DNA of 64,000 nucleotides. Origin: Burkholderiales bacterium. Its GTDB lineage: Bacteria > Pseudomonadota > Gammaproteobacteria > Burkholderiales > Burkholderiaceae_C. Both the position numbers and the translations under genes were made by a program. Numbering within the stretch: position 1 is the first letter of the stretch; each line of letters begins with the position of its first letter. The notes below the pieces were generated by a model. That model made no database searches, was not told the DNA's origin, and worked only from the letters and a program-made list of their open reading frames with translations. The stretch spans positions 124,001 through 188,000 of the forward strand of contig JAGWTR010000007.1 in NCBI GenBank assembly GCA_028868855.1, written 5' to 3'. Below are positions 42,837 through 63,513 of this stretch, in pieces.

Positions 42837-42889
42837 GGCGCCCCTGCCGAAGCACAAATGCGGCGCGCTCTTGCTTTTGAAGGGAATTC

Positions 42890-42937
42890 CTGGTCGGGGT
42901 GAGAGGATTCGAACCTCCGGTCTCTACGTCCCGAACG
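42890..42937 (-). repeat. attL: 48-bp direct repeat of tRNA-Pro 3' end
   Basis: This 48-bp sequence is identical to 63436-63483, which is the 3' half of the intact tRNA-Pro gene including the encoded CCA. With one mismatch the identity extends leftward to 42882/63428. It stops exactly in the anticodon arm, after CCCGAACG on the + strand. This is the signature of tRNA-targeted integration by a tyrosine recombinase, whose gene begins about 100 bp inside. Confidence 0.92.
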
Positions 42938-42986: not shown

Positions 42987-43008
42987 TTGCGACACTGGTG
43001 CGACAGTG
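42987..43008 (+). repeat. Element-internal 22-bp repeat, left copy (candidate integrase arm site)
   Basis: TTGCGACACTGGTGCGACAG plus TG is identical to 63334-63355. It contains GCGACA twice, 11 bp apart, and an inverted CACTG/CAGTG pair. It lies about 50 bp inside attL and immediately upstream of the integrase start. Confidence 0.75.
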
Positions 43009-43034
43009 ACAGGCAAAGAGACAGGAGCAACACA

Positions 43035-44141
43035 GTGGGAACAATCACAAAAAGAGGCGAACTGCAATGGCAGGCACGGGTTCGGCGCAATGGCTTTCCA
43101 CCTCAGGTCCGGACGTTCATGTATCGGGAGGATGCTGAGAAGTGGGTGCGAGGCCTTGAGCGTGAGATGGAAACAACCGGCTTCGTGGACCGAAAGGAGG
43201 CCGAGGCCAACACCCTTGCCAAGATTTTGCAGCGTTACAAGCAGGAAGTGACGCCCCGCAAAAAATCGGCCGAGATCGAAGCGGTGAAGATCGACGTGAT
43301 CCTGCGCGATGCAGCTCTGGTGAGTCTGAAGATGACCGCCATCACCAGCAAGGCCGTGGCGGCGTGGCGTGACCGTCGCCTGGCTGTGGTGTCGGGCGCC
43401 ACCGTCAATCGTGAAATTGACGTGATCTCCACGGTGCTGAACCACGCTCGCCGCGAATGGGGCATCTATGTTGACAACCCCATTCCGTACGTGAAGCGAC
43501 CAGAGAAGGCCAAGGCCAGAGATCGACGCTTTTCGCCAGACGAGGAGCGGTACCTGCTGAGCTACCTGGAAAGCGGAGAGCGCCGCACGGACGGAACTTT
43601 CACCAAAGGAACGCGTAATCCATGGCTTGCTCCCTTGTTGCGACTGGCTCTAGAAACCGCAATGCGCCGAGGTGAGCTATTGGCATTGCGGTGGGAGTTG
43701 GTCGATCTGGACAAGCAGACGGCACACTTGCCGGACACCAAGAACGGCGATGCCCGTACGGTGCCGTTGTCCACGCGCGCCGTTGCGATCCTAAAGTCTT
43801 TGCCTTATGAGCTTGAAGACGAGCACAGCAGCGAAGATGACCCACGCGTGGGCCCTGTGTTCGGCACCACGGCCATGGCCCTGCGCAAGGGCTTCACCCG
43901 CGCGGTCGAGCGCGCACGAGAACAGTACTTGGCGGACTGCAAGACTCAAAAGAAGAGGCCTGTGCCTGGGTTCTTGGAAGATGTCCACTTCCATGACAGC
44001 CGCCATGAAGCGGCGTCAAGACTGGCCGACAAACTGTCGAACATGCTGGAGTTGTCGGCCGTGACGGGGCACAAGGACCTGCGAATGCTGAAGCGGTACT
44101 ACCACCCAAGGGCAGAAGATTTGGCAAAAAAACTAGGTTGA
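43035..44141 (+). CDS. Tyrosine site-specific integrase of the element
   Basis: A 368-residue phage-type integrase. GTG 43035 is chosen because AGGAG lies 8 bp upstream and the frame upstream crosses the arm-site repeat. The N-terminus (GTITKRGELQWQARVRRNG) is the arm-binding domain. The catalytic domain has all key residues: Arg in TAMRRGELLALRW, HxxR in HFHDSRHEAASRL, His in VTGHKDLRMLKRYYHP and the nucleophilic Tyr in the same motif. It should catalyse integration into and excision from tRNA-Pro. It sits at the end distal to the intact tRNA. Confidence 0.9.
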   Translation: MGTITKRGELQWQARVRRNGFPPQVRTFMYREDAEKWVRGLEREMETTGFVDRKEAEANTLAKILQRYKQEVTPRKKSAEIEAVKIDVILRDAALVSLKMTAITSKAVAAWRDRRLAVVSGATVNREIDVISTVLNHARREWGIYVDNPIPYVKRPEKAKARDRRFSPDEERYLLSYLESGERRTDGTFTKGTRNPWLAPLLRLALETAMRRGELLALRWELVDLDKQTAHLPDTKNGDARTVPLSTRAVAILKSLPYELEDEHSSEDDPRVGPVFGTTAMALRKGFTRAVERAREQYLADCKTQKKRPVPGFLEDVHFHDSRHEAASRLADKLSNMLELSAVTGHKDLRMLKRYYHPRAEDLAKKLG

Positions 44142-44483: not shown

Positions 44484-44493
44484 GACACGTGTC
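44484..44493. promoter_or_regulatory. Palindrome GACACGTGTC in the divergent spacer
   Basis: A 10-bp perfect palindrome lies midway between the XRE regulator start (44451) and the lipoprotein start (44525), overlapping a TTGACA-like hexamer at 44483-44488. It is the best candidate for the XRE operator. Binding is inferred from position only. Confidence 0.4.
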
Positions 44494-44524
44494 TATAGAT
44501 AACATTCGAGAGGAAAGCAAGATC

Positions 44525-45616: not shown

Positions 45617-45618
45617 AC

Positions 45619-46092: not shown

Positions 46093-46102
46093 ATACCCGC
46101 TT

Positions 46103-46124
46103 GATTACGGTAATTACCGTAATC
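46103..46124. promoter_or_regulatory. 22-bp perfect palindrome between convergent genes
   Basis: The sequence GATTACGGTAA followed by its exact reverse complement forms a 22-bp palindrome, followed by two partial echoes (TCGTAATCACGG) to 46140. It lies between the convergent ends of the genes at 46092 and 46169. It has no T-tract and low GC content, so it looks like a protein-binding site rather than a terminator. Confidence 0.5.
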
Positions 46125-46168
46125 ATCGTAATCACGGTAGTCAGCTTCGCGCCACGTTGCGCTGGACA

Positions 46169-46927: not shown

Positions 46928-47004
46928 TCCATCCCCCTGTTAGTTATCTGAATTACCGCGTATTTTCTATCGATATCCGGGGCGACCTTTTGGGGGGGAG
47001 CCTT

Positions 47005-48585
47005 CTATGCTGCGATGAACCCAATTCCGCGTACAGCTGGCCTCATGGCGGGAGGCAAGTCCTGAATGGTGATGTGATTGCGCTCATCGCGAGCGGCCCG
47101 ACCGAGGGCTCTGCGCAACGCTTGGCTCAGTTGACGAGGTGGCAACCCTCTTAGCTGGTCTAGCACTGCGTCATCCAGCTTCGAGGCAAAGGTTTCACCC
47201 CAACAAGCCTCAGCGCGCATGCGGACATAGATCGCCTGCGCAATGCGAGCGACCTGGTCGGGCGTGGGCGCCTGCACATGCAACACAGCCATCCTCGACA
47301 ACAGTGGCGCCGGAATGTTGTCCGCACAGTTGGCCGTGGCGATCCAATTGACATGGCTGGCGTCGATGGTGAAGTCTCGGATGGACAGATCCATGAAACT
47401 ACGCGCGCTGCGGGGCTCCAGCAGGGTGTAAAGCGGTGCCATGGGGTCATATGGCTTTTGCTGATCAACCTTGTCCAGCTCATCCAGGAGCATGATCGGG
47501 TTGGCTTTGGGTTGATAGGCCAAGAGCTCAAACAACATGCCCGGCTCCGAGTTGCTCCAGAAGGATTCAGACCCAGCCAAAGGGGAGCCTGACTGCACAC
47601 TGGCCATGTCGAGCACGCGGAATGGCAATGACAGCTTTTCGGCCAACCATCTGGCCGCTTCGGTCTTGCCGATACCTGCTGAGCCAACCAGCAATACGGG
47701 AGGCCAGGCCACCCTTCGATCGCCCAATGCCGACAAGGCAAAGTGGTCACGCAGCAGATCAGCCAGTTCGAAGAAGTTCGGGAAGGCTTGGATGAACTCG
47801 TCCAGCACGGCGGGCCAGTCACAAGGGAGAACGCCCAACTTTCGGCGCTCACTTCCTGCCGTGTTGATGCGTTCAACCATCGCCTGAGCACGCCTCAACT
47901 TGTCATCACCTTTCGGACGATGGCGATCAACGAAGCGCTTGAGCCCCGCCAACTCCAGCAGCGTCACCGTGGGCTCTGTCGGACAGGGTTCTGCTCCGCC
48001 TGAGGATGATGCCGAGCTCAACAACAAACTGACAGCGGCTTGTTGCTCGTCTTCGCCGGATTCTGTCTTCGGCAGCAGCACCATGACTTCATCACCACGG
48101 TGGCCAACGGTGAGACTCGTGCGCTGCACACCGCGTTGTCGCGCCATTTGCCTGTGACGCCGGACATCTTCTGCAAAAAGCCCGCCCACACCAGCGTGCT
48201 CCATGCATCGCTGCCCTTGTGCTGCATGCACGTCGCTGACCATGGAGGGGGCCCCGCAGACAGGACAGCTCAATTGGGCAGCATCGCGCGCCTGCTCAGT
48301 GATGTCTTGGATGGCTCGCTCACGCTGCACGCTCGCATTGGTCAACTCGCATCGCAGAAGCATCTTGTCGCGTACCGTGGTCACACACAGCATCAACGGG
48401 TTCTGAGGCCCCGTTTCGCCCATCAACAACTCGCATTGAGCCAAGAAGTGAGCAAGCACCCGCAAATGCCCTGGAGGAGGCTCCACGATCTGCTGCGCCA
48501 GCCAAGGGTGGCGTTGCCTCAACTGATCAATCGCGAGCCGGTACTCTTTGCGGCGCAGGGAGCGGCAGCCTTTTGAGATCATCAT
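47005..48585 (-). CDS. Lon-like AAA+ ATPase without protease domain
   Basis: A 526-residue AAA+ protein. Walker A is LLVGSAGIGKTEAARWLAEK near residue 298 and Walker B is PIMLLDELDKVDQ near 365. The sensor-1 segment VNWIATANCADNIPAPLLSR and the general spacing resemble the ATPase of Lon proteases. The protein ends soon after the AAA lid, so no Ser-Lys protease domain is present. A putative zinc site (CPVCGAPSM plus QGQRC) lies near residues 105-130. The role is unknown; possibilities include a remodelling ATPase or a defence component. Divergent from the HTH-like gene at 48666. Confidence 0.78.
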   Translation of the reverse strand: MMISKGCRSLRRKEYRLAIDQLRQRHPWLAQQIVEPPPGHLRVLAHFLAQCELLMGETGPQNPLMLCVTTVRDKMLLRCELTNASVQRERAIQDITEQARDAAQLSCPVCGAPSMVSDVHAAQGQRCMEHAGVGGLFAEDVRRHRQMARQRGVQRTSLTVGHRGDEVMVLLPKTESGEDEQQAAVSLLLSSASSSGGAEPCPTEPTVTLLELAGLKRFVDRHRPKGDDKLRRAQAMVERINTAGSERRKLGVLPCDWPAVLDEFIQAFPNFFELADLLRDHFALSALGDRRVAWPPVLLVGSAGIGKTEAARWLAEKLSLPFRVLDMASVQSGSPLAGSESFWSNSEPGMLFELLAYQPKANPIMLLDELDKVDQQKPYDPMAPLYTLLEPRSARSFMDLSIRDFTIDASHVNWIATANCADNIPAPLLSRMAVLHVQAPTPDQVARIAQAIYVRMRAEACWGETFASKLDDAVLDQLRGLPPRQLSQALRRALGRAARDERNHITIQDLPPAMRPAVRGIGFIAA

Positions 48586-48665
48586 TACCCCCTCTCGTTA
48601 CTATAATTCACTATAACACCAATGATGCAGAAGGACTTGATATAGTCATTTACAGTTAAACCCAA
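48586..48665. promoter_or_regulatory. Divergent promoter/operator between AAA+ and HTH-like genes
   Basis: This 80-bp AT-rich spacer carries ACTATAA at 48600-48606 and again at 48610-48616 (10-bp phase), and TATAGT in the opposite orientation at 48640-48645. Such repeats beside a candidate DNA-binding protein gene suggest an operator controlling both directions. Promoter hexamers could not be fixed. Confidence 0.45.
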
Positions 48666-49418
48666 ATGGCAGACATGCCCAAGCTGACCAACGATCAAGT
48701 GCCTATCGTGGCCGCAGCCCTGATACGCCTGCGGGGTGACACGTTGAGTGCCATTGCTGCGGCAACAGACATACGCGCCGCCAACCTTTCTGTATGGCTG
48801 CGCGGCAAGGCGCAAGTGATCTCAGCCAAGCGGGTTGCAGGGTTGCTGTACCACCTGGGCATAGAAGGTGGCCAACTGCGTAGCGACGTCCTGCATCAGT
48901 GGCAAGACTCTGGCCTGCTGAGCGACACAAAGACTGTGCTGGATGCCCTGCTGACCAATGAGGGCACCAAATGGCTGTTTAAGGACTTGCAGCCAGCGCT
49001 GACCAAGACGCGGTTCATGCAAGTGAACAACGCCTGGCTTCGCCTTGAAATCACGGCCAGTGCAACGGCCGCTGCAGACTTGAGCCAAGCCATTCACGCC
49101 AACCGGGTGCTCACATTCCGAACACCGCTGTCCGACGTGCCAACTGACTCCTTGTCTGACGCGCGAGATACGTTGCTGGCCATGGCCGAGCAAATGGCCG
49201 TTGATGTCGGCGATCAGGAACTACTGGAGGGGTTGATGGCCCGACTGGCTGATCTGTCCGCTGGGGATCTGGTGTTCAACACAGCATCTGCGTCTGAGTG
49301 GACACGGCTAGAAGGTGCGCTTAGCCGCGCCCTTCGATTGGGCGTATCGCCCAGCGCCATCGCCAAGCTGATTGACGATGGCGCAAAGGAAGCGCATCTG
49401 TCAGATGCGACTCACTGA
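48666..49418 (+). CDS. Hypothetical protein with possible N-terminal helix-turn-helix
   Basis: A 250-residue protein. Residues about 10-60 (ALIRLRGDTLSAIAAATDIR then AANLSVWLRGKAQVISAKRV) look like an HTH or XRE-like DNA-binding domain. The rest is helical and unfamiliar. It is divergent from the Lon-like ATPase gene across an 80-bp spacer with repeated motifs, so it may regulate that gene or work with it. It overlaps the convergent lipoprotein gene by 7 bp. Confidence 0.6.
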   Translation: MADMPKLTNDQVPIVAAALIRLRGDTLSAIAAATDIRAANLSVWLRGKAQVISAKRVAGLLYHLGIEGGQLRSDVLHQWQDSGLLSDTKTVLDALLTNEGTKWLFKDLQPALTKTRFMQVNNAWLRLEITASATAAADLSQAIHANRVLTFRTPLSDVPTDSLSDARDTLLAMAEQMAVDVGDQELLEGLMARLADLSAGDLVFNTASASEWTRLEGALSRALRLGVSPSAIAKLIDDGAKEAHLSDATH

Positions 49419-49783
49419 CACTTGCCTGCGGCTTTGAGCAAAGCGTTGCACGAAGCCGCACCGCCGCCCGCCGACGCAGCAGGCTTGGCTGATGCCTTGC
49501 CTTGTTGTGCCTGGCAAATGGCATCAGAGACAACGCGGCCCGTAATGCCCACAGCGCCGGTCACGTAGCAACTGTATTGCTTGCCAGCGTTGGTCTTGAC
49601 CACGTAGGTGGACTTCACCCCGTCATCCACTCGGTCCGAGATGGTGAAGCTGCCCTTGGGCAAGCCGAGGGTAAAGGCAGTATTTTGCTCAATAGCCTCG
49701 TTGCTGACGGCAATAGATGCACAGCCTGCTGCGGATGCGATCAGGGCGAGGATTGCGAGGCGCGTAAGAAATGAGTTTTTCAT
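49412..49783 (-). CDS. Small hypothetical lipoprotein
   Basis: A 123-residue predicted lipoprotein: signal peptide MKNSFLTRLAILALIASAAG, lipobox AAGC with Cys21. The mature part has KQYSCYVTGAVGITGRVVSD and AICQAQQGK, then an Ala/Gly-rich linker and a C-terminal NALLKAAGKCQ. Cysteines in pairs suggest disulfides in the periplasm. The function is unknown. Confidence 0.7.
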   Translation of the reverse strand: MKNSFLTRLAILALIASAAGCASIAVSNEAIEQNTAFTLGLPKGSFTISDRVDDGVKSTYVVKTNAGKQYSCYVTGAVGITGRVVSDAICQAQQGKASAKPAASAGGGAASCNALLKAAGKCQ

Positions 49784-51286: not shown

Positions 51287-51814
51287 TTAATCACATTTAA
51301 TTACAGCTGGCGAACTGGCAAACCTCCACCCAATACCAGCCCGACAAAATCCCTCTTCGCGAGAAAGAAAAAGAACTTCCTCGTCGACCCATGCATCGGA
51401 TACATTGCTCTTCGTTTTGATGCGATAAAGTGCATCAATATTTCCGTCCTCATTGAAGTCCTTGAACTCTACCGCGTAAATCAAGCACCCAACAAAGCTT
51501 CCCGCGTCCGTTGCACTTCTTGAATTTGCCGTAACGTTGACAAAGGAGCAATATTCCTTGTTCTTTGCCTGCATCGCAATGAGCCACAATCTGTCTGTTC
51601 CTCTGGACGGCAGAACAAAAGCAGATTTAGCTCCATAAAATTTGACTGAACCATGGGCATCAACACCGACAAAAGCTAGCGCATTCCTCAACACTTTTTG
51701 AGGCGGCTTTTCGACGGATACTGCCATAGGGCTAGCCGACATGGCTGCTATGACATGAAATGTCGCCCCGATCAACAAACAGACACCAAGCGTCAGACGC
51801 ATCAAATATTTCAT
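51287..51814 (-). CDS. Probable periplasmic immunity protein for the adjacent effector
   Basis: A 175-residue exported protein with the signal peptide MKYLMRLTLGVCLLIGATFH (cleavage near VIA-AMS). It contains an EF-hand/FG-GAP-like DFNEDGNIDALYRIK at about residues 120-134 and cysteines in KNKEYCSFVN, FVGCLIY and FCRAG. Its start overlaps the stop of the peptidoglycan-hydrolase effector gene (ATGA). A coupled, exported small protein directly after a wall-degrading T6SS effector is the expected form of its cognate immunity protein. No family name assigned. Confidence 0.6.
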   Translation of the reverse strand: MKYLMRLTLGVCLLIGATFHVIAAMSASPMAVSVEKPPQKVLRNALAFVGVDAHGSVKFYGAKSAFVLPSRGTDRLWLIAMQAKNKEYCSFVNVTANSRSATDAGSFVGCLIYAVEFKDFNEDGNIDALYRIKTKSNVSDAWVDEEVLFLSREEGFCRAGIGWRFASSPAVIKCD

Positions 51815-54042
51815 TGAGAGGGTCTTTCATAGTTGACAATAATTGTCCCGCGTGGCGTCTGCATGCTTTTCTCCACATCCAAAGACACGTCATCGGTCAG
51901 CAGCCTAAACAAATATGCTGCATACCCCTGACGCTCCATATACCCATTCCCACCACCATTCACCAAAACACACACCCGCCCCACTGCGGCTGCATCAATT
52001 CCGGCGTCAGTCACAGAATTAATGTTGTACCTGCCACCGCCAACAAATTTAGATGCCCAAAAAAATCCACCGCTATCACAGGCATTATGGGCTGAACTTG
52101 CTATCACATCAGGATCAAATCGAGGCGACCAGCGCGCCTGCAATGACCCATTGCTGCCAGGATCCCCTGACCAGTGAATAGTTTGACCAGTAATCCGTTG
52201 ATCAGAATAATTTCCAGAATGATTAGGAAGTGCGCCAGCGGATCTAAAATCTCCGTATATCACATAATTACTTAACCATGTCAACTGGAGTATTCCGCGA
52301 CCATAGAACGGCCCGTAATACTGAGCCATCGGAATTCCAGGATTTGGCGCCCCACTCCCATATTCCCGCATTGTTTTCCAGCGATCGGTTTCCAAAAAAA
52401 CTTGCGCAAGAAAATGGGCTTGCCTATGCCTTGATTGAATATGGTATTTCCGCATGGCTTCGTTGAGCGGAAGCACATACCTTTCTATCCTAATACGGGC
52501 CGCATTGTTTGTAATTTGATAAACCGTCGCGGGGCCGTTGGTGTGCGCTCGGTATTGATTGCCCACGCGGTCATAGTATGGGTAGCGAGGCATCAATTGG
52601 CTCAACTCGCTAAGCGACAGCCATGCGCTTTTCCTGAAATGCCGCACAAACTGCATCGGATGAAAGTGCCAAATACTGCGATCACCCAAACCAGCATCAG
52701 CCCAGAAAGCCATCTTTTGCACATGCTCGACGAACTTTTGCCATGAATCAGCTTCGGCCAGCGGTTGCCCGGGTTCGCGCAGATGCCCATACCTGGCCTC
52801 AAGGTCGGCAGCATCCCATTCACTGGGGGCCTTGCACACCAAATGCCGAACTTTGACGCGTGATGCTTCATCAGCGCCTTGGCACAGCGTGATCGTGCGT
52901 TGGTCATCGCAAATGCCATCGCCCGCATTGGCCGTTTGGCCCTCCTCGCGCTTTTCCCAGCCTTGCCAATGCACGAAGTCCGCATCGCTTAACTTGGCAA
53001 TGGCATCAGGCGCCAGATCAACGTACCCCATGGCCGTGGCGCTGTAGCGCACCAGTTGCCAATTTTCGTTGCGCGTGGTGACGTCAGTCCCCAGAACACG
53101 ACCGAAGCGCAGCCATTCCAGCCCGGCGCTGGGGCAGTCTGGATACAGGGCCGTGGCCAGTCTGAACAGCTCGTATTCATAGTTATCTTGAACGACCGGG
53201 GCACCTAACTGCGAGTAACTGCCATCTGCCCCTGCCACATAGGTGGTAGCGACACGCCGACCTTGTTCCAGCTTGACGGACACACACAGTGGCAACGCGT
53301 TTTGTCCAGCAGCCCCTTCAGGCAACGCAAAGTCGATGTTGCCAGGGAAGTCAATGCGATGTGCGCCGTTCTCTGCAGCACGCGGATGGCGCACTGCAAA
53401 GTCTCGATTGGCGGGAATCACAAAGTGTGCGTCACCATAGAAGTCAGCACTGCCTGCACCTTGTGTGACGGATGTACTGTCACGCCAAAATGCGCGGAGA
53501 CCTGCATCGGTGGCAAAGACTTCGACGTGGCACGCTTCCCGGTCGTACAACACGCCCGCAAAGCCAAGCACGTCCTTGCGCCATACACGCAGGTTTGTTG
53601 GCCTCTGTACTGACGGACCAGGCGAGGCTTGCCTCAGCCATTCGCTAAGTTGCTGAAAGCGGTCGGGCAGCAATGAACTGCGACTGGCCAGATGCATATA
53701 GAGCGTATAGAACCCGACTTCGGTGTGCTCGCCCGTTTGCGTTGCGTGCCGGATCAGCACGAAGCTGGTGTCATATTGGCCCAAGCCCTCATAGGTTTCT
53801 GGCGACCGCGCAAAGCGATAAGCAACAACAACGCCATCTGCTATGGCGCGAATCGGTTCGCCACCCCCAATGACGTGTATGCCGCCATGCCAGCGATGCA
53901 CAGGGCCATGGGATGTGTTGAGGGTGCTGACGGGGTATCTGCCCTCATTGGCATCGACATGGGCTGCCAGCAGGCGGTCAAGGTACGCGTCTTCGGACTC
54001 GTTGTTTTGCCTCGTAGGCAACACGGGATAGCTGATCAACAT
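51811..54042 (-). CDS. T6SS cargo effector: M23-like plus GH19-like peptidoglycan hydrolase
   Basis: A 743-residue protein with no signal peptide. Residues about 40-125 resemble an M23 (lysostaphin-like) peptidase, with HRWHGGIHV (49-57) and LYMHLAS (114-120). The usual metal-ligand Asp of HxxxD is His56, so activity is uncertain. Residues about 545-720 resemble a GH19 chitinase/endolysin: HFLAQVFLETDRWKTMREYG with candidate catalytic Glu, then FYGRGILQLTWLSNYVIYGD. It would cut both peptide and glycan parts of the wall in a target cell. It starts 12 bp after VgrG, the usual arrangement for a VgrG-delivered effector. Confidence 0.75.
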   Translation of the reverse strand: MLISYPVLPTRQNNESEDAYLDRLLAAHVDANEGRYPVSTLNTSHGPVHRWHGGIHVIGGGEPIRAIADGVVVAYRFARSPETYEGLGQYDTSFVLIRHATQTGEHTEVGFYTLYMHLASRSSLLPDRFQQLSEWLRQASPGPSVQRPTNLRVWRKDVLGFAGVLYDREACHVEVFATDAGLRAFWRDSTSVTQGAGSADFYGDAHFVIPANRDFAVRHPRAAENGAHRIDFPGNIDFALPEGAAGQNALPLCVSVKLEQGRRVATTYVAGADGSYSQLGAPVVQDNYEYELFRLATALYPDCPSAGLEWLRFGRVLGTDVTTRNENWQLVRYSATAMGYVDLAPDAIAKLSDADFVHWQGWEKREEGQTANAGDGICDDQRTITLCQGADEASRVKVRHLVCKAPSEWDAADLEARYGHLREPGQPLAEADSWQKFVEHVQKMAFWADAGLGDRSIWHFHPMQFVRHFRKSAWLSLSELSQLMPRYPYYDRVGNQYRAHTNGPATVYQITNNAARIRIERYVLPLNEAMRKYHIQSRHRQAHFLAQVFLETDRWKTMREYGSGAPNPGIPMAQYYGPFYGRGILQLTWLSNYVIYGDFRSAGALPNHSGNYSDQRITGQTIHWSGDPGSNGSLQARWSPRFDPDVIASSAHNACDSGGFFWASKFVGGGRYNINSVTDAGIDAAAVGRVCVLVNGGGNGYMERQGYAAYLFRLLTDDVSLDVEKSMQTPRGTIIVNYERPSQ

Positions 54043-54054
54043 GGTCGAGCTGAG

Positions 54055-57000
54055 TTACGCGGAAAAGGGAAATGGCCCATTGAGCTTGAAAGTGCTTCGC
54101 GGCAAGACGGGCATAGACCAGCTCATGGTGCCTGGCCCCACCATCGACTTCTGCCCTGCTTGCACGGTAATTTGGCCTGGGCACTGGAAGGTGACGCCCC
54201 CGTTCTCGATGATGATGCTTGCGCCGCCAGATACCGCAATGACGATACGTTTGTAAGCTGCCAGGTTGACTACACCATTGGCTGTCTTGATCTCAAGCGT
54301 GCCCTTGGCTGCAATCTGAGCAGTTCCGGCTTGCGCTTGCAGATCAATCGGCCCTTGGGCTGCGATCAGCGTCAAGCCCTTGCCTGCTGCTTCGCTACCT
54401 GGCTGAATGGCCCCCGCCAAGATGCCGATGGCCTGCCCCGTATGGATGCGTGCTTGCCCCCCCACGGCAAAATGCGTGTCCTGCCCGCTGCCGATCGTTG
54501 TGGTGTCGTTGCTGCTCAGGTGTAGGTCTTGCCCTGCCGTGATGCCGATACCCGCCTTGCCAACCATGGCGATGTTGGCGTCGGCCATGTGCGGCACCTT
54601 GTCTTGCCCTGTGCCAGTGTTTTTGCATTGCGCATCGGCCAAAGCGTTTTGCAGACTCGTGTTGCTGACCATGCCACTCAGGCTCTTGGTCAGCGCCGCC
54701 GCAGGTGCCAGCTTGTCGTCCAGCGCGCTTTGATTGGCGCCTGTGCTGCCCGCCGTAGCGGCCAAGCCAACGGTCTGGTGCGTGGTGGTGGCTTGATGGA
54801 AGGCACTGGCCAGTTGCTGCATCTGTTTAGCCAGGGCCATCCCTGCTGCGTTGTCGCCCGCACCTTCTCCGGATTGACCCAAGCCGTTGTTGAGCCCATA
54901 GGTACTCAGCATCACGCCACGCACCGCTCTGAGGCCGCCCCAAGCATCCGTGCGCATCTCGAAGCCCAAGCCTCTGAATGATCCCCGGTGGTTGTCGGCC
55001 TGGTGCAGCAGGTGTCCCATCTGCAGCCATGTCTGGGCCTGCGTGGAGTGCAGTTGCATGCGCCCCTGGTTGGGCGTGTCGTCAAAGACAAGCTGGTTGT
55101 AGCCCTGTCCGCCGAACTCCTTGCTCTTGACGCCACTCAGTGCCCCAGCGTTGTTCTGGCCTTCGGCACCATCGGTTGCGGCACCCGGTGCAGCACCGTG
55201 CCAGGGCGGGCTGTTGCCACCGCTTCCAGAGCCCACCAGATTCATCTGGCCGCTGGGGCTGTGATCGGTGGACGCTGCAAAGGCACTTGTGTCGGACGCG
55301 TCAGCCTGCCCGCCCGGCGTACGGGGGACGCCACCTTCACCCCGCCCGTTATAGAGGCTGGCCTGAACGTAGGGGCGATCGATGTCATTGCTCAAAAAGC
55401 CAACCAGCACCTCATGGCCAATGCGCGGGATGAACTGGTGGCCCATGCCAGGGCCTGACAGGCGCTGCATGACGCGCAGCCAGCAACTGTGATCGCTGTT
55501 GGCTCGCTGGGGCGCATAGGGATTGGATTGCCAGTGGAACTTGACTTTGACCCGCCCGAGCTTGTCGGTATAGAGTTCATCGGCGCCGTTGGGTGTGGTG
55601 CTGCCGTCTGGGCCAACGACGATGGCAGTCTGGGGGCCTAATGCGGTTGGGCGGGGGCGTGGCCGATGGCCGGTGTCGTCCATCAAAACCGCACGCCAGG
55701 GCACACTGCGACGCACCGCCTGGAACTGACATGCATAACCCGTCTCTGCGGCTTGCTGCTGCAAGGCTCTGGTGTCTACGGCCTCCTGGTCCACCGAGAT
55801 GCTGAGTTGCGGCAGTGCGGCTTGCCCCAATGACTTGGCGATGGTGTCACTGAGGTCTTTGGGCAGATTGTTGACCCCATAGGCATCCGTGGTGGTGATG
55901 AAAAATGATTTGTCGTCCGGTGTGAGCCCAAACGCTGACAGCGGGTCCAAAGTGGATTGGGTGATGTACATCCAAGTGCCCGCGCGCAAGGTGCGCACAG
56001 TACCTCGGCCCAACCAAGTCTTGTAGCGGGCCTCATGGGCCTCTTGCAAACGGGTGGCGGTGAACTGGGCTTCGGCCTGGTTGCCAAAGATGTAATCGCC
56101 GGTGGGGTCGTAATTGACCAGCCAGCCTTGCAGGCTGGTGGCTTCGTCGCCACCCCATTGCTGGTTGGTGGGCACATCCGCGGTGATGGCACTGTTGCTG
56201 GCGTAATCCCAGCCTTGCACCACGGTAGCAGTCGGGCCCAGCTTGCGGATGGCGCCCAGAGCCTGGATGCTGTCTTGCACTTCCTGGCTGCTGCTTCGAT
56301 GAAAGCGGATGCCCTGGCCGCCAAGGCTGCTGCCACTGGTCGGATCTTGCGGCTGATTCTTGCTGTCGACGAAGAAAACGACGGTGTGGCCCCCAGGTGC
56401 AGATTCGTCTTCCTCGACGCGCCAGCAGATGCCTTCCTCCGCCAGCAGACGACTCACGAAATCCAGATCGCTCTCACGGTACTGGACGCAGTAAGAGCGC
56501 TCGCCACCGTTGCGGGCAAACAGGCCCTGCGCGACATAGCTGGGCACATCGTCATCCCACTTCCATGCGGCGATCGAGGTGTGGTCAGCGAACACGTCCT
56601 CGACGATGTCAATGATCGATTTGCCCTGCCAGATTCGGCTGCAAAGGGTGTGGCCAAGCAAGGCGATCCAGGGTTGAACCAACAGGCCTTTGCGGGCAAA
56701 TCCGCCATCAGAGCCCAGTGAATCCGCCTCCATGACGTAGCCGCTGCGCCGGGTACGACTGCCATCTGCAAGCGTGGTTTGCAATGTGATGGGACGGGCG
56801 TAGAGCTGCTTGAGCTCGACGTGGGCGTTGAGCACCAACGCGTTGATGTACAAAGCGAAAGGCTGCGACACGGCCTCGTGCAAAACGAAGCTCTCGACCA
56901 TCAAGTCGGCGGGCAGACTGCGTTCGCTGCTGGGTGCGGACAGGGTGTAGAGGCGGGTATCTGTGCCCCACTGGCCAATGATGGAGGCCAAGGCCCCTTG

Positions 57001-57057
57001 AACAGCAGACTGGATGGACGACAGCCCTCCAGCCATGCTCAATGAATCCAGACCCAT
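54055..57057 (-). CDS. vgrG: Type VI secretion tip protein VgrG
   Basis: A 1000-residue VgrG. The N-terminal Rhs/Vgr domain has YCVQYRESDLDFVSRLLAEE with GICWRVEEDE. The gp5-type OB-fold contains DKLGRVKVKFHWQSNPYAPQ, CWLRVMQRLSGPGMGHQFIP and GHEVLVGFLSNDIDRPYVQA. The C-terminal DUF2345 region has glycine-rich beta-spike repeats (GKAGIGITAGQDLHLSSND and others). It forms the puncturing tip of the T6SS tube and should load the following gene product. No other T6SS structural genes are present here, so it must use apparatus encoded elsewhere. Confidence 0.93.
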   Translation of the reverse strand: MGLDSLSMAGGLSSIQSAVQGALASIIGQWGTDTRLYTLSAPSSERSLPADLMVESFVLHEAVSQPFALYINALVLNAHVELKQLYARPITLQTTLADGSRTRRSGYVMEADSLGSDGGFARKGLLVQPWIALLGHTLCSRIWQGKSIIDIVEDVFADHTSIAAWKWDDDVPSYVAQGLFARNGGERSYCVQYRESDLDFVSRLLAEEGICWRVEEDESAPGGHTVVFFVDSKNQPQDPTSGSSLGGQGIRFHRSSSQEVQDSIQALGAIRKLGPTATVVQGWDYASNSAITADVPTNQQWGGDEATSLQGWLVNYDPTGDYIFGNQAEAQFTATRLQEAHEARYKTWLGRGTVRTLRAGTWMYITQSTLDPLSAFGLTPDDKSFFITTTDAYGVNNLPKDLSDTIAKSLGQAALPQLSISVDQEAVDTRALQQQAAETGYACQFQAVRRSVPWRAVLMDDTGHRPRPRPTALGPQTAIVVGPDGSTTPNGADELYTDKLGRVKVKFHWQSNPYAPQRANSDHSCWLRVMQRLSGPGMGHQFIPRIGHEVLVGFLSNDIDRPYVQASLYNGRGEGGVPRTPGGQADASDTSAFAASTDHSPSGQMNLVGSGSGGNSPPWHGAAPGAATDGAEGQNNAGALSGVKSKEFGGQGYNQLVFDDTPNQGRMQLHSTQAQTWLQMGHLLHQADNHRGSFRGLGFEMRTDAWGGLRAVRGVMLSTYGLNNGLGQSGEGAGDNAAGMALAKQMQQLASAFHQATTTHQTVGLAATAGSTGANQSALDDKLAPAAALTKSLSGMVSNTSLQNALADAQCKNTGTGQDKVPHMADANIAMVGKAGIGITAGQDLHLSSNDTTTIGSGQDTHFAVGGQARIHTGQAIGILAGAIQPGSEAAGKGLTLIAAQGPIDLQAQAGTAQIAAKGTLEIKTANGVVNLAAYKRIVIAVSGGASIIIENGGVTFQCPGQITVQAGQKSMVGPGTMSWSMPVLPRSTFKLNGPFPFSA

Positions 57058-57635: not shown

Positions 57636-58229
57636 ATGCAAGTGACTCATCTCGTTCGCGCCGCTATCGTGGTGGCAACCGCCATGGCCTTGACCGGGTG
57701 TCTGGTGCCAGAAAAATTCAATGCATCGGTAACCGTTCGCCCTGATGGGGCCTATACCTACAAATACCAGGGCACAGCAGTTCACATGCTGGCGGCCATG
57801 GAGATCAAGAAAAGCGGCAGCTTGAGCGCCAAGGCGGAAAGCCAACTCAAGGCTGATGCCGAGAAGGCGGCAAAGGCACCTGGCGTCAAGAAGCTGACTT
57901 ATCAAGGTTCTGGTCGATATGAGGTTTCTGTTGATCGTGATTTGAGGGTGGGTCAACGCTCAGAAGTTTTGGGTATCGTCTCCCTGACCAAGTCGAAGGA
58001 CGGCGTTTACACCTTGTCTGGCTCTCAGCTTAAAGAGAAAGAACGCTCCGAGCTGATGGGTCTTGGCATCAAGGTAGATGGCGCGGTGGAGGTGACTTTG
58101 CCCGGCAATGCCAAGGTGCTGACGCAAAATGCAAGCGGTACGCCCGGCCTTTTTTCAAAGGCCTATTCGTGGAAGGTCAATGGCTATGACGCCAAGCCCA
58201 TGATGACCTTCACACTCCCAGGTGGTTAA
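57636..58229 (+). CDS. Hypothetical lipoprotein
   Basis: A 197-residue predicted lipoprotein with the signal peptide MQVTHLVRAAIVVATAMALT and lipobox LTGC (Cys22). The mature part begins LVPEKFNASVTVRPDGAYTY, resembling the beta-rich start of LppM-like domains, then a charged helix and further strands ending with YSWKVNGYDAKPMMTFTLPG. The function is unknown. It is divergent from vgrG and its end overlaps the recombinase-helicase chimera gene by 4 bp. Confidence 0.65.
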   Translation: MQVTHLVRAAIVVATAMALTGCLVPEKFNASVTVRPDGAYTYKYQGTAVHMLAAMEIKKSGSLSAKAESQLKADAEKAAKAPGVKKLTYQGSGRYEVSVDRDLRVGQRSEVLGIVSLTKSKDGVYTLSGSQLKEKERSELMGLGIKVDGAVEVTLPGNAKVLTQNASGTPGLFSKAYSWKVNGYDAKPMMTFTLPGG

Positions 58230-61200
58230 GCCGTGATGCTTGGTCGTGACGCCTTCAGCTTCTCAAGTATGGCCTGCGGCTCAGTCAACTTGACCAACTC
58301 ACCCATGCTGCCATCGTCATTGATCCAACGCAGGTGATTGCCGTATGGCGTGATGAACAAGACCTTGCCATAGGCCGCCGGGAAATGCTGGGACTTGCGA
58401 GCGGCATCTTTGGTGCTCTCTTTGGTTTCCAGCAGGCGCTGCATGGGGGCTTGGCCTGCCTCGTGCGACACGCACACCACAAAGTCCGGGTAGAAATAGT
58501 GTTCGTGCTCTGCACGCACCACTCGCACTGAGTAAGGCTTTTTGTCGGGGTTGCGGTGCCACCAGTGCACGAAGTCAGCTTCGTCCAATGCCCTGGCAAA
58601 CGCCAGTTCCAGCGTGTTGAGCTTGACCCAGCCGTCATAGCGGCCCACGCTGAAAGTGGCGCCATCGTCCAGCTTAAAAACTTGGTCTGCCCACCAGTGC
58701 CGCTCGTCCATGAACAGCACGGTCTCTACGTCTTGCGCATCTTCGGTGGATGGCGGCAGTACGCCATAGATGTTCTTGCTGGACTCCTCCAGTGCGATGT
58801 CCTCAGGGAAGATCATCACATCCGGAAGGGGCTGTGCATCCACCTGTTTGGCTTGGTTAGCAATGGCTTGGAAGATGGCCTCGCGCAACTCTTGAGCGCT
58901 ATCCCGGATGACCCAGTGCGCGGCATCTCGTGTCAGTCGCAACAGGTCACTGCCTGTCAATGCCGTGTCCGAGGGCGTCAATGCCAGAGCAGCATCCAGG
59001 GTGGGCCTCAAGCGGGCAGACAGAGCCTGCACGATGATGCGGTAATCCTCTTCCTCGGCGTGTGGCAACTCTTCCAGGGCAGCCATGGCTTCGCGAGCCA
59101 ACGCGGCCCGGTCCGTGACAACCTGGATGGATTCCTCGTACTTGGTTCCAAGGGTCAGCTCTTTGTGCAGCTCTTTCTGCCGGATTCGGTTGAGCGCTGC
59201 GTGCACGGCCGTTTGAGCGAGCGTGGCGCTGATGTCCAGGGTCTGCGCCACCTGCAGCGAGATGGCTGACAGATCGACCAGAGAGGGCTTTTCTTCCGAT
59301 TTCAGGGCGGTACCCAAGGTCGGAAGGTGGGCCTTCCGATGAAAGGTCTTCAGGCGGTTTTCGCTCAAGGCTTCCAGCACCTCATCTCGCGTGCGCGGCT
59401 TGCCTGCGCGAGCAGGCTTCTTCTGAGTTGGGTCACCGACGGTTGTGTCAAACGACCACGTGGCATCACCAAACAGATCTTGACCCGAGGGCTGAGGCGT
59501 AGCGCCATCGTGGTGAGCTTGCCACTCAGGGGAGGGCTGTACTGAGTCCGATGTCGCAGGAGGCGCGACGCCTGACGACCCTGGCAACCCGAGGTTGTAG
59601 CTCAGGGGCTGATCAGGCGTCGGACGGTTGGTGTAGACCACGCCTCCGGCCACGGTATGCCTTGTCAGCAGCTTTTCGGTCTGGCCTTCAAGCTGGCTCT
59701 TGACCGCGCTGGTGGCCTGCACCGCCGTCTCAAAGCCTGCTTGCGCCTGGGCATTGCCCAGGTAGACATAAGCAGTGTTCAGTTCGGCTGGGATGGCTTG
59801 CGGCTTCGGGAAGCCGTCGCGAACCTGGCGCGCCACGCGCATGACGCGGCCAATGAACTGCATGGCAAAGTCAGTGTCGTTCACCGGCTTTGTACTGGCC
59901 AGTACAAAGGCACGCGGTGCATCAAAGCCCGTGCCTGCTGATTGTTTGAAGATCAGCACCTGCTTGGTGGTGTCGTTGGCAATGGCGGCCATCAAGATTG
60001 GGTCAGGCTCGTCGGCAGAGTGCTTACCAATGGCCTCGGGAGGCACATGGCACTGGCGCATCAACTCGTCTGCGGCCTCGTCCACCGTGCGCTCACCGTT
60101 GGCCACCTGCACAAGCAGCAGTGGGGTGCAGGCAATGCCTGCTTGTTTGAGCTGTTGGCCAATCAGCACGTTGCGAGCCCAGGCCTGGCGCAGCACCGTG
60201 CGGCGCAAGTCGGTCACCTGCTGCATGGTGGTGCCCAGGCTGTAGACCACGGCCTCGATGTACTGCTTATTCAGGCGAGCCTTGACCACGTCGTCACGGC
60301 TGACTTCAACCGCAATGGGGGTCAAGGCCTGACTACCTGACGCCTGGTTGGCTGTGCCGTACAGGCGCCGTGTTTTGCACGATAGGTGTCCCAACCCTCG
60401 GCTCGCTGCATCCTCGCCAAGCATGGCCTTCAGGTCTGCTGCCCACTGGTGGCGGAAACAATAGGCGGTAACCGAAGCATGGTGTTCGGGCCAGAGCTTT
60501 CGGGCGATTCTGCGAACTTCCACTGTGAAATTGACGGGGCTCTTGATCTGAACCTTCATGGCCGTGGCGCCATGCCTGCGCCACCTTTCACGCAAGGCGT
60601 CCACGAGCGGGTGAGGGTCGTCGGCACGGTACAGCACATCGCGTGACGGCTGGCCCTGGCTCGCCTTGACCTTGGCGCCTTCAACGCGGATGTTGATGGC
60701 ATTGGTCTGCCGCGCGTCATCGTAGCCATAACCAATGAGCACCCCTCGCGCCAATTCCTCAGGCCTGCAACCGGTCAGCGCGCAGATCAGCATCGGAAGG
60801 GCGTAGCGGCCACTTGCCGCCGCCTGAAACATCTGAGTGCGCCAGCCTGTAGGCAGGCCGCGAAGCGCCTGGCGCTTGCTTTTGCGGCGGGTGCGAGCAG
60901 CCGACAGGCCCTTTGCTTGCACGTCCGAGACTGAGTGAATGATGCCCAGTATGTGCGCGAGATCTGGCCCGAGATTGACCGGGCTCTGGCCCTGGGTGCG
61001 TTCGATCTCGGCCGTCTTCAGTGCGTCTTGGACGCTGGCAAAACAGTAGTAACGCAGCGCTGCCAGACGCTTGAAGTAGGTGGAGGGTCGGGTTGTGTCC
61101 AGGATGGCAGCTTGCAGGCCGCCGTTGGTGCCAGCAGATCGATTGATCAGCATCTGCGCTGTCTGGATGTACTCGGCCTTGGTTTTATCTGAGGGTGAGC

Positions 61201-61285
61201 CGAATCGCCCACCTTTGGGCGCAATGGACAGGAGTGCCTGAGTGCACTGCTGCGTCAGCTCCAGCAGGGTTTGATGTTCCGTCAT
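58226..61285 (-). CDS. Chimeric protein: tyrosine-recombinase-like domain fused to helicase C-terminal lobe and PD-(D/E)XK nuclease
   Basis: One uninterrupted 1019-residue frame. Residues about 1-312 look like a tyrosine recombinase: Arg174 in CALTGCRPEELARG, Arg278 in TAYCFRHQWAADL (the HxxR His is Tyr275), His300 in RGLGHLSCKTRRLYG and Tyr309. From about residue 325 the protein matches the C-terminal half of type III restriction-like SF2 helicases: motif V SAGTGFDAPRAFVLAST near 449 and motif VI QFIGRVMRVAR near 476. The C-terminus has a PD-(D/E)XK pattern, HYFYPDFVV then RLLETKES. No Walker A or DEAD box exists, so the first RecA lobe is missing. Neither a DNA methylase nor a second helicase gene is near. 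Confidence 0.8.
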   Translation of the reverse strand: MTEHQTLLELTQQCTQALLSIAPKGGRFGSPSDKTKAEYIQTAQMLINRSAGTNGGLQAAILDTTRPSTYFKRLAALRYYCFASVQDALKTAEIERTQGQSPVNLGPDLAHILGIIHSVSDVQAKGLSAARTRRKSKRQALRGLPTGWRTQMFQAAASGRYALPMLICALTGCRPEELARGVLIGYGYDDARQTNAINIRVEGAKVKASQGQPSRDVLYRADDPHPLVDALRERWRRHGATAMKVQIKSPVNFTVEVRRIARKLWPEHHASVTAYCFRHQWAADLKAMLGEDAASRGLGHLSCKTRRLYGTANQASGSQALTPIAVEVSRDDVVKARLNKQYIEAVVYSLGTTMQQVTDLRRTVLRQAWARNVLIGQQLKQAGIACTPLLLVQVANGERTVDEAADELMRQCHVPPEAIGKHSADEPDPILMAAIANDTTKQVLIFKQSAGTGFDAPRAFVLASTKPVNDTDFAMQFIGRVMRVARQVRDGFPKPQAIPAELNTAYVYLGNAQAQAGFETAVQATSAVKSQLEGQTEKLLTRHTVAGGVVYTNRPTPDQPLSYNLGLPGSSGVAPPATSDSVQPSPEWQAHHDGATPQPSGQDLFGDATWSFDTTVGDPTQKKPARAGKPRTRDEVLEALSENRLKTFHRKAHLPTLGTALKSEEKPSLVDLSAISLQVAQTLDISATLAQTAVHAALNRIRQKELHKELTLGTKYEESIQVVTDRAALAREAMAALEELPHAEEEDYRIIVQALSARLRPTLDAALALTPSDTALTGSDLLRLTRDAAHWVIRDSAQELREAIFQAIANQAKQVDAQPLPDVMIFPEDIALEESSKNIYGVLPPSTEDAQDVETVLFMDERHWWADQVFKLDDGATFSVGRYDGWVKLNTLELAFARALDEADFVHWWHRNPDKKPYSVRVVRAEHEHYFYPDFVVCVSHEAGQAPMQRLLETKESTKDAARKSQHFPAAYGKVLFITPYGNHLRWINDDGSMGELVKLTEPQAILEKLKASRPSITA

Positions 61286-61599
61286 GGATGTGCTTTTCGT
61301 TGGCAGGGCTTGCCCACAATTTGCAGGGCAGCCACTACCAGTGGTGTTCCTATTTGTTCAAGCTACGTGCAGCTACTTGCTCGACACCTGAGCGGGCGGG
61401 AGGCCAACGCACGGAGGGGCAGCGAGTGAAGACACGTTCGTTTTTGGCGAGTGATCACACGCTGCCTGGTGAGCGATGACACGCTGATTGGCGAGTGATC
61501 ACACGTGGACAAGTTGCCGTGAGCCGGTGTTCTCGGGGTAAATGACCGCATCTTGGTCAGCGAGTGATCACACGTGGATAAGTCTCTCAATTCACAGGG
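61286..61599. other. Probable plasmid-type replication origin
   Basis: This 314-bp gene-free stretch lies directly downstream of repA (on the minus strand). It contains four GCGAGTGATCACACG-type iterons and DnaA-box-like GTGGATAA/GTGGACAA sequences at 61504-61511 and 61573-61580. Together with an adjacent RepA gene this is the usual structure of a theta-replicating iteron plasmid origin. Confidence 0.7.
61446..61580 (+). repeat. Four 22-bp-phased iterons
   Basis: Copies begin at 61446, 61468, 61490 and 61559. The first three are exactly 22 bp apart. Copies 1, 3 and 4 share GCGAGTGATCACACG; copy 2 has three changes. Copies 3 and 4 continue into CGTGGACAAG and CGTGGATAAG, one mismatch from a DnaA box (TGTGGATAA) in copy 4. 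The core contains the palindrome GTGATCAC. Confidence 0.85.
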
Positions 61600-62547
61600 C
61601 TATCCACTGCCTGTCGCTGCTGGCTTGGGGTGTATCAGCACGCCAGCATGGATCACGATGCATTTGTCGTCTGTTGAGTCTGAGACAAGGTCATGGAGCT
61701 CTGGGTAATAAGCGGCCACCTTTCGAAGCTGCTTTTTGAAATTTGATTTGAAGTCCTTCAATTGCCGTTTCGTGGGCCCTGAGTAGTCAGCGCCTAGTTG
61801 ATTCATGAGTTGCTCCCAAGGTATTTCTGTGTGCTTTCTTTGGGATCTGTTGAGTGTGTATGTTCGATAAATTGTCCACAGGTATATGTCCATGGCCAGC
61901 GGGGATCGTGTGAGTTTTCTGTAAACAGAGAACTTCAGCGGGACACTGCTCCTGCAGATGGCTCGATAAAAGCCATCGGAAACAGTGATTGTGTTTTTCC
62001 ATGGTGATCCTTTTTGGGGATCGATAGGGTCCCAGAGGATGTCAAGAGAGTCGGTAACAAGGAGCCTCTTCGATGACTCTCTGGGTATTTGATCCAGCCG
62101 CTCAAGTGAAATGGTGCAGCAAAATAGCCGCATGGCTTGGTCCTTGAATCGCTCAATGGTGCCTGTGTCCTTTGAATTCAGCCCAATTTTCTTCATCCAT
62201 TCAGTTTGGTTTTTGCCGATGTCAATGACCTGTGATTTGGTTTTTTTGACCTCGGTGCACAGCCAAGCAAGGATCAATCGAGGGATTGGGCCGTAAGGTA
62301 TACCGAATCGAGGAGAGGTCGGAGAAATGGTCAGGCGCATCAGTCGATTGCTTCTGCTGAAATGCGCTCCCGGCTTGTCGTCGGGGTTGCTGTGGGGCAG
62401 CGTTGTCTGCACAAGAAAATTTGCCATATAGCAATCGGGCTGACGCCAATTCGCCGTGCCCTGCAATTCGACGGCATGGTTGATGATTCCAGTGTGGGCC
62501 GGACATATCAATGAGCCAGTCTTGCGGCTATTGTTGGTGGAAGTCAT
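61600..62547 (-). CDS. repA: Plasmid replication initiator, RepA family
   Basis: A 315-residue protein of the plasmid-encoded RepA family (RepA_C type). The family core is clear: FGIPYGPIPRLILAWLCTEV with KKTKSQVIDIG, then WMKKIGLNSKDTGTIERFKD and QAMRLFCCTISL. Later come FKLT-type segments (VYRKLTRSPLAMDIYLWTIY) and IPWEQLMNQLGADY. It would bind the iterons just downstream and start theta replication. The ATG has an excellent GGAGGTCAACA site and overlaps the stop of the preceding HTH gene. Confidence 0.88.
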   Translation of the reverse strand: MTSTNNSRKTGSLICPAHTGIINHAVELQGTANWRQPDCYMANFLVQTTLPHSNPDDKPGAHFSRSNRLMRLTISPTSPRFGIPYGPIPRLILAWLCTEVKKTKSQVIDIGKNQTEWMKKIGLNSKDTGTIERFKDQAMRLFCCTISLERLDQIPRESSKRLLVTDSLDILWDPIDPQKGSPWKNTITVSDGFYRAICRSSVPLKFSVYRKLTRSPLAMDIYLWTIYRTYTLNRSQRKHTEIPWEQLMNQLGADYSGPTKRQLKDFKSNFKKQLRKVAAYYPELHDLVSDSTDDKCIVIHAGVLIHPKPAATGSG

Positions 62548-62867
62548 TGTTGACCTCCATTCTCAGCGTCTTGCTGTTGCCAACGCTGCATATTCAATTG
62601 CTCAGCCTTGGTTGGGCGGCCACGCGGGCGTTTGGCCGGTGGCGGACATGCTGGTCGATTGGATTGAATCCAATCCATGACCTCATCACGAAACCAACAT
62701 AATCTTCGGCTGCCAGGCATTTTCCAGGGCCGTGGAATCAGGTGTTGGTATTTCTCATTGGTTGAGCAAGTTCGGATGGTTGTGGCTGTTTTTCCGATGA
62801 TTTCGGACAAATCTTCGACGAACAGAACTTCCCGCTGCCCAGGGACTGCGCAAATAGATTTCTTCAT
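62544..62867 (-). CDS. Small DNA-binding protein upstream of repA
   Basis: A 107-residue protein. Residues about 12-70 resemble an AlpA/MerR-like winged HTH: VLFVEDLSEIIGKTATTIRT, then LIPRPWKMPGSRRLCWFRDE and VMDWIQSN. The tail is basic and AT-hook-like (KRPRGRPTKAEQL). Genes of this type often precede repA on plasmids and may control copy number or excision. ATG 62867 follows GGGGAAA; a GTG at 62876 is possible. Its stop overlaps the repA start. Confidence 0.75.
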   Translation of the reverse strand: MKKSICAVPGQREVLFVEDLSEIIGKTATTIRTCSTNEKYQHLIPRPWKMPGSRRLCWFRDEVMDWIQSNRPACPPPAKRPRGRPTKAEQLNMQRWQQQDAENGGQQ

Positions 62868-62939
62868 TTTCCCCACCGATGGTTGGGCACGCGAACCATG
62901 GTCGCGAATCGGTGGCGCGCATCAGCGCCACCCCGTCAG

Positions 62940-63435: not shown

Positions 63436-63483
63436 CTGGTCGGGGTGAGAGGATTCGAACCTCCGGTCTCTACGTCCCGAACG
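63436..63483 (-). repeat. attR: 48-bp direct repeat within tRNA-Pro
   Basis: Identical to attL at 42890-42937. It covers the 3' part of the functional tRNA gene from the anticodon loop through the encoded CCA. Integration left this copy as part of the intact tRNA. Confidence 0.92.
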
Positions 63484-63513
63484 TAGCGCTTTACCTGACT
63501 AAGCTACACCCCG
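63437..63513 (-). tRNA. tRNA-Pro (CGG anticodon)
   Basis: A 77-nt tRNA on the minus strand. The acceptor stem CGGGGTG pairs with CACCCCG, followed by discriminator A and encoded CCA. The anticodon stem-loop is CTACG-TTCGGGA-CGTAG, giving anticodon CGG, proline. The T arm contains GGTTCGAATCC. It is the integration target of the adjacent element. Confidence 0.95.

What the first reader, a model, noticed from the sequence alone, without database searches (positions are those of the whole stretch)
58226..61285. Tyrosine-recombinase-like domain fused to half a helicase and a PD-(D/E)XK nuclease
A single 1019-codon frame joins a recombinase fold (Arg174, Arg278, His300, Tyr309; HxxR His replaced by Tyr) to the C-terminal RecA lobe and nuclease of a type III restriction-like enzyme. 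The ATP-binding first lobe is absent. Either two neighbouring genes fused in frame by deletion, or this is a working DNA-processing or defence protein in which the recombinase domain provides DNA binding or cleavage. I know of no named system with this order.
Basis: partly seen in the sequence, partly recalled or inferred. Interest (0 to 1): 0.75.

Follow-up and report, generated by a model that had tools for sequence, protein, structure and literature searches.

The report
One-off recombinase–restriction gene fusion
A mobile DNA island in this bacterium carries a gene in which a recombinase-like protein is joined in frame to the back three-quarters of a DNA-restriction enzyme that has lost its engine, most likely by a chance rearrangement rather than as a new working system.

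Summary
In detail: one 1019-codon frame (minus strand, 58226-61285) joins a tyrosine-recombinase-like protein (REC, residues 1 to about 328) to the last ~692 residues of a type III-like Res subunit that lacks its ATP-binding lobe. Relatives split exactly at the junction. REC relatives are stand-alone genes; Res relatives are full-length enzymes beside a methyltransferase gene. Only the window's own genome crosses the junction in genome samples of 299, 42, 399 and 369 (overlapping), among 20 genome-contig loci and among 40 plasmid records. The window holds a ~20.6 kb island between tRNA-Pro and a 56-nt copy of its 3' end, with a canonical integrase at the far end. In sister islands an alpA-repA-rec module lies by the tRNA, and defence genes (restriction enzymes among them) often follow rec. 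Best reading: illegitimate recombination in that cargo slot, probably a deletion that took a methyltransferase gene, Res lobe 1 and the rec tail. The Res part cannot act as an ATP-driven type III enzyme; REC may still work. No island with the intact ancestor was found. A working fusion is not excluded, but nothing found supports it. Low interest.

The parts
58226..61285 (-). fused ORF, 1019 aa (P0001)
60302..61285 (-). REC part, residues 1 to about 328: tyrosine-recombinase-like protein without its variable tail
   Evidence: REC relatives match up to residue 326-331; XerA match E 0.0026; 0 of 50 invariant columns broken
58226..60304 (-). RES part, residues 328-1019: type III-like Res without lobe 1, stop codon included
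   Evidence: RES relatives match from about residue 328 on; full-length relatives
60296..60307 (-). junction region (codons 327-330)
   Evidence: shared bases with REC and RES relatives amount to about GTC
61422..61573 (-). four iteron-like repeats GTGTGATCACTCGC (three exact, one with 2 mismatches) between repA and rec
   Evidence: 5 matches in the window on both strands, one of them the plus-strand reading of a palindromic copy; 0.74 expected by chance
61600..62547 (-). RepA-like gene
   Evidence: PF04796 RepA_C E 1.1e-23
62544..62876 (-). small regulator-like gene called AlpA-like here; the label is recalled from its size and place, no library names it
   Evidence: no Pfam or NCBIfam hit; phrog_6355 (unknown function) E 6.5e-8
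63437..63513 (-). tRNA-Pro (CGG), island attachment site
42882..42937 (-). 56-nt direct repeat (98%) of the tRNA-Pro 3' end, distal island end
42987..44141 (+). canonical tyrosine integrase (INT) beside the distal repeat
   Evidence: PF00589 E 2.1e-21
57636..58229 (+). 197-aa gene (called lip) convergent with the fused ORF, overlapping it by 4 bp
   Evidence: 91% identical in G159 and G047, there not next to REC

Best explanation
The ORF is a one-off in-frame fusion made by illegitimate recombination in the cargo slot of a tRNA-Pro genomic island. Shown: the island's repA-rec module lies at the tRNA end; defence genes lie near rec in several sister islands; relatives of the two halves are separate genes; the junction falls at the end of Res lobe 1 and in the non-conserved tail of REC. 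Inferred: a type III-like mod-res pair sat in this slot, and a deletion with at most a few shared bases removed mod, the lobe-1 codons and the rec tail. The product is REC with a new ~690-residue passenger. REC keeps every invariant residue of its family and may still act on DNA. The Res part has no ATP-binding lobe and no methyltransferase of its own kind in the genome, so it cannot act as an ATP-driven type III enzyme and is most likely a relic.
For: Homologues split at the junction: 20 genome-contig loci (12 RES only, 8 REC only), 40 plasmid records (10 RES type, 30 REC type), and no junction outside the own genome in samples of 299, 42, 399 and 369 genomes, which overlap. In 20 REC loci whose match reaches residue 326-331 the frame ends 19-30 codons later. 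Lost motifs. Mod matches lie upstream in 12 of 12 RES loci L032-L043 but no Mod is beside this ORF, and the own genome holds no other copy of Res lobe 1 of this family and only distant Mod matches. Island. Cargo near rec: 9 of 10 chosen proteins from 7 sister islands hit defence models, among them type I and type IIG restriction enzymes. REC genes elsewhere are found broken or interrupted (L083, L086, L054), so changes to rec seem to be tolerated.
Against: No island with the order rec-mod-res-lip was found, so the ancestor is inferred. None of the defence genes scanned near rec in sister islands is a type III system, and the island most like this one (L126) has lip and a secretory-lipase gene there instead. 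The Res part shows no stop in 692 codons, as expected of a recent event but also of a gene under selection.
Confidence: 0.65

Rival explanations
1. Capture instead of deletion: a stray Res fragment was inserted by illegitimate recombination between rec and lip, where no intact mod-res ever stood. The product and its state are as in the best explanation.
For: L126, which shares vgrG, lip, rec, repA, the AlpA-like gene and ispB with the window, has rec and lip facing each other with 35 bp between and no mod-res. The Res stop lies exactly at the lip stop (4-bp overlap).
Against: It needs two illegitimate joins, whereas a deletion from resident cargo needs one. In other sister islands whole defence genes sit near rec.
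Confidence: 0.18
2. A working fusion: REC binds specific DNA and delivers the PD-(D/E)XK nuclease there, an ATP-independent nuclease for defence or exclusion of rival elements.
For: Both cores keep their key residues. REC breaks 0 of 50 invariant columns. The frame is open, and the junction lies between domains.
Against: The junction occurs in one genome only. The Res part has lost lobe 1 and breaks 4 of 212 invariant columns, all within residues 978-988, where 12 of 15 controls break 0-2 and L007, L042 and L040 break 6, 8 and 17.
Confidence: 0.07
3. Assembly chimera: the junction does not exist in the cell.
For: It is seen in one assembly only, and no reads are at hand.
Against: Both sides continue in island order (ispB, tRNA-Pro, AlpA-like, repA, rec on one side; lip and vgrG on the other, genes that also occur together in L126). 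Two false joins, one of them in frame, would be needed. The assembly is 99.67% complete with 0.23% contamination.
Confidence: 0.06

Closest known systems
Type III restriction-modification Res subunit (full relatives carry Pfam ResIII PF04851)
   Same: The last ~692 residues align over their whole length with full-length Res-like proteins at up to 84% identity; PADLOC REase_III E 2.3e-7.
   Different: No lobe 1 (motifs I, II, III), no Mod gene beside it, a REC protein in front.
Tyrosine recombinases (XerA, IntI4 as nearest solved structures by profile)
   Same: Arg...Arg...LGH...Tyr pattern in register; profile hits XerA E 0.0026 and IntI4 E 0.067.
   Different: Tyr in place of the HxxR His; no Pfam or NCBIfam model hits REC; a profile comparison with the island's own INT finds no similarity (probability 0.2%).
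tRNA/tmRNA genomic islands with integrase at one end and AlpA at the other (I23, I44, I55; PMC12595487, passages read)
   Same: Direct repeats of the RNA gene's end, integrase at one end, AlpA-like gene at the other, defence cargo (here in sister islands).
   Different: Target is tRNA-Pro; a RepA-like gene with iteron-like repeats and rec are present; excision and transfer not tested.

Membership tests
Type III restriction enzyme (Res) | Two-lobe SF2 ATPase with motifs I and II | tested here: not met
   G[SA]GKT and DEAH of 11 aligned full-length relatives lie before the point where the window joins; the window protein has neither
Type III restriction enzyme (Res) | C-terminal PD-(D/E)XK nuclease motif | tested here: met
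   P933-D934 ... E953-x-K955; D934, E953 and K955 lie in invariant columns of A4
Type III restriction enzyme (Res) | Partner Mod methyltransferase beside it | tested here: not met
   No Mod match in the window; only distant matches in the own genome, on another contig
Type III restriction enzyme (Res) | ATP-dependent cleavage between two sites | not testable with these tools
   needs enzyme assays
Tyrosine recombinase | Arg I, Arg II, LGH His and Tyr nucleophile | tested here: met
   R174, R278, H300, Y309 invariant in A3; R278, H300 and Y309 in register with XerA
Tyrosine recombinase | His of HxxR | tested here: not met
   Tyr275; Tyr in 16 of 20 and Thr in 4 of 20 aligned rows. This residue is recalled to vary among active members, so it is not taken as excluding
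Tyrosine recombinase | Fold | tested here: inconclusive
   Best Foldseek match is Tn1549 integrase, but E 0.18, probability 0.60; XerA profile match E 0.0026
tRNA genomic island | Direct repeat of the tRNA 3' end at the far end | tested here: met
   56 nt, 98%
tRNA genomic island | Integrase of its own | tested here: met
   PF00589 E 2.1e-21 beside the repeat
tRNA genomic island | Empty site in relatives | tested here: inconclusive
   G033 and G241 (same genus) have ispB and tRNA-Pro without the labelled island genes in the 7 and 10 kb fetched, but the window's left-flank genes were not found in any fetched locus

The most novel reading that the evidence does not exclude
The fusion is a working protein: REC's DNA-binding and cleaving core directs the retained PD-(D/E)XK nuclease to recombination sites, giving an ATP-free, site-directed nuclease that the island uses against rival elements or phages.
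Probability: 0.07. Interest if true: 0.65.

Novelty: new member of a known kind. Interest (0 to 1): 0.2.

Why it matters
If the main reading is right, this is a snapshot of how defence islands shuffle cargo: a restriction gene cut down to a fragment, its remains riding on a module gene without breaking that gene's conserved core. It also warns against reading a domain fusion seen in one genome as a new system. The side result deserves more follow-up than the fusion: a recombinase-like family without a Pfam or NCBIfam model that goes with an AlpA-like and often a RepA-like gene in tRNA islands, at least some of which also carry a canonical integrase.

Tried and rejected
Full-length structure: a joint alignment of both halves (A1) put the REC rows on the RES part (15-19% identity), so I did not use it and modelled the halves apart. 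The RES model is poor (mean pLDDT 60.5, pTM 0.41) and its Foldseek list has no match with E <= 0.001; I draw nothing from it. The REC model also has no Foldseek match with E <= 0.001; the best is Tn1549 integrase, E 0.18.

REC compared with the island integrase INT by profiles: no similarity found (probability 0.2%), a result against close kinship of the two.

REC as the island's integrase: dropped, because a canonical INT lies beside the distal repeat here and in the three other islands whose distal repeat I fetched (L079, L121, L123).

Selection test: dS to the nearest relative is saturated (2.0), so dN/dS says nothing about the time since the fusion.

Empty-site test: left flank not found in fetched relatives. 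Viral contigs: no match.

Papers: five searches, of which I saw listings; passages read of PMC12595487 and PMC11142916. No title or abstract start in those listings tells of a tyrosine recombinase-Res fusion; the body texts of the listed papers were not read for it, and most subscription journals are not held.

Full report
OBSERVATION. The frame 58226-61285 lies on the minus strand (the plus strand there holds stops), 1019 aa, in a 3.4 Mb genome of 17 contigs. Library hits to the whole protein are few: Pfam Helicase_C below its cut-off (E 0.14, 434-484), nothing in NCBIfam, PADLOC REase_III E 2.3e-7 over 867-956, and in PHROGs a helicase (E 0.0034) and, barely, an integrase (E 0.85).

TWO GENES, ONE JUNCTION. 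tblastn against 72,556 plasmid records gives 40 records, none covering 80% of the query: 10 RES-type matches start at 322-328, 30 REC-type matches end at or before 330. In genome contigs 20 loci are related: 12 match only from residue 314-329 on, 8 only up to 326 or 330. In whole genomes only the window's own crosses the junction: among 299 of the family (46 with any match), 42 of the genus (10), 399 of the order (26) and 369 of the class (11); the samples overlap, are drawn from larger groups (except the genus), and many of the weaker matches are to other helicase or nuclease genes. Some RES rows start at 314-326, where the end of lobe 1 aligns weakly. One REC row (L026) runs to 345, but it is a REC fragment with a stop. 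In the 20 REC loci whose match reaches residue 326-331 the frame ends 19-30 codons later. RES relatives have 205 or more residues before the junction point in frame (stop to stop), except L006, whose lobe 1 is split between pieces, and apart from short or weakly matching rows such as L020; 11 aligned full-length ones show G[SA]GKT, DEAH and [TS]AT there. On the named plasmids L052 and L053 the Res gene follows a gene annotated as site-specific DNA-methyltransferase, and a Mod match lies upstream in 12 of 12 RES loci L032-L043.

THE JUNCTION. The window reads GTT GAA GTC AGC CGT GAC GAC GTG GTC AAG. REC relative L013 reads GTT GAA GTC GAA CGC. RES relatives L032-L034 read TCT or TCA, GTC AGC CGC, then two Asp codons. 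The shared stretch is about GTC; with no long homology, illegitimate recombination is the inference. REC loses only a tail that is not conserved; Res loses lobe 1. The Res end is about as long as in L032.

STATE OF THE TWO HALVES. REC breaks 0 of 50 columns that are invariant in 19 relatives; of the 19 as controls, 18 break 0-2 and L110 breaks 9. The REC profile (15 real rows) hits XerA (E 0.0026) and IntI4 (E 0.067), motifs in register. The REC model has mean pLDDT 79.5, but residues 292-312, with H300 and Y309, are below 50. RES has no stop in 692 codons; dN 0.105 and dS 2.0 (saturated) to L032; 4 of 212 invariant columns are broken, all in residues 978-988, against 0-2 in 12 of 15 controls and 6, 8 and 17 in L007, L042 and L040. 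This may be a first sign of decay near the end, but it is weak. The RES model is too poor to judge.

SURROUNDINGS. tRNA-Pro (CGG) is at 63437-63513 and a 56-nt copy of its 3' end (98%) at 42882-42937; a PF00589 integrase (INT) lies at 42987-44141 beside the copy. Together they mark an island of about 20.6 kb. A partial tRNA copy with INT beside it also occurs in L079, L121 (G047) and L123 (G159). At the tRNA end lie the AlpA-like gene, the RepA-like gene (PF04796), four iteron-like repeats and rec. Of 18 REC loci scanned for tRNAs 13 have one (nine Pro, three Arg, one Ser); of 6 RES loci none has. Of 104 ORFs listed in 11 loci I scanned 10 against PADLOC, chosen by size and nearness to rec, from 7 islands. 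Nine hit defence models: SoFic, DruE and DpdE in L073, DruE in L076, PD-Lambda-5 and type IIG in L128, type I HsdR in L077, DrmD in L132, mads_8 in L078; the one from L127 hit none. None of the ten looks like a type III system. L126, the island most like this one, has lip facing rec at 35 bp and a secretory-lipase gene beyond, so defence cargo is common near rec but not universal.

MISSING PIECES. In the own genome the full Res of L032 matches only this locus, with its residues 210-898 of 903. The best Mod matches are distant ones on contig C1, where a ResIII match in another frame lies nearby, probably a separate system. So neither lobe 1 nor a close Mod is elsewhere in the assembly.

HOW IT WORKS. 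Type III enzymes need ATP hydrolysis by an SF2 helicase-like domain together with Mod subunits (PMC11142916, abstract and passages). The window protein has no ATP-binding lobe and no Mod beside it. Its likely state is a REC protein with an inert passenger. Because INT is present, island integration probably does not need REC (inference). REC genes elsewhere are found in pieces or interrupted (L083, L086; L054 with an IS3-family transposase), so the fusion may cost little. REC's own role is not shown; its company (RepA-like gene, iteron-like repeats, related genes on 2.3-3.4 kb plasmids) suggests work on a replicating circle such as resolving multimers (inference).

VERDICT. A working fusion stays possible at about 0.07. 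The odds are set here for the first time in a filed report, split between deletion (0.65) and capture (0.18) because no intact ancestor was found.

Noticed in passing
60302-62876 (minus); L044, L045, L073, L076, L078, L080, L128, L132: A recurring AlpA-like - RepA-like - REC module beside tRNA-Pro and ispB. REC has no Pfam or NCBIfam model, and in several islands it coexists with a canonical integrase.
   Followed up: partly
42882-63513: A ~20.6 kb genomic island at tRNA-Pro (CGG), bounded by a 56-nt repeat, with INT at the far end.
   Followed up: yes
44489-49783: A block next to INT (two unknown genes, a 252-aa gene, a Lon-like AAA ATPase, two more unknown genes), members of which recur in the islands of G047 and G159: a conserved block of unknown function.
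   Followed up: no
51811-57057 (minus): VgrG gene (DUF2345, T6SS_Vgr) and a 743-aa gene with a weak Peptidase_M23 match inside the island; a VgrG at 82% identity also in island L126.
   Followed up: no
own genome, contig C1:204084-206568 (L057-L059, L142): Distant Mod matches in a 653-aa frame and a ResIII match in a 1025-aa frame nearby: probably a second, separate type III system.
   Followed up: no
plasmid hits H12, H14, H17-H40; L055: Plasmids of 2.3-3.4 kb from Klebsiella, Enterobacter, Escherichia, Citrobacter, Salmonella and Polaromonas encode distant REC relatives, many annotated as site-specific integrase.
   Followed up: partly
L054, L083, L086, L026: REC genes that are interrupted or in pieces, one with an IS3-family transposase gene.
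   Followed up: no
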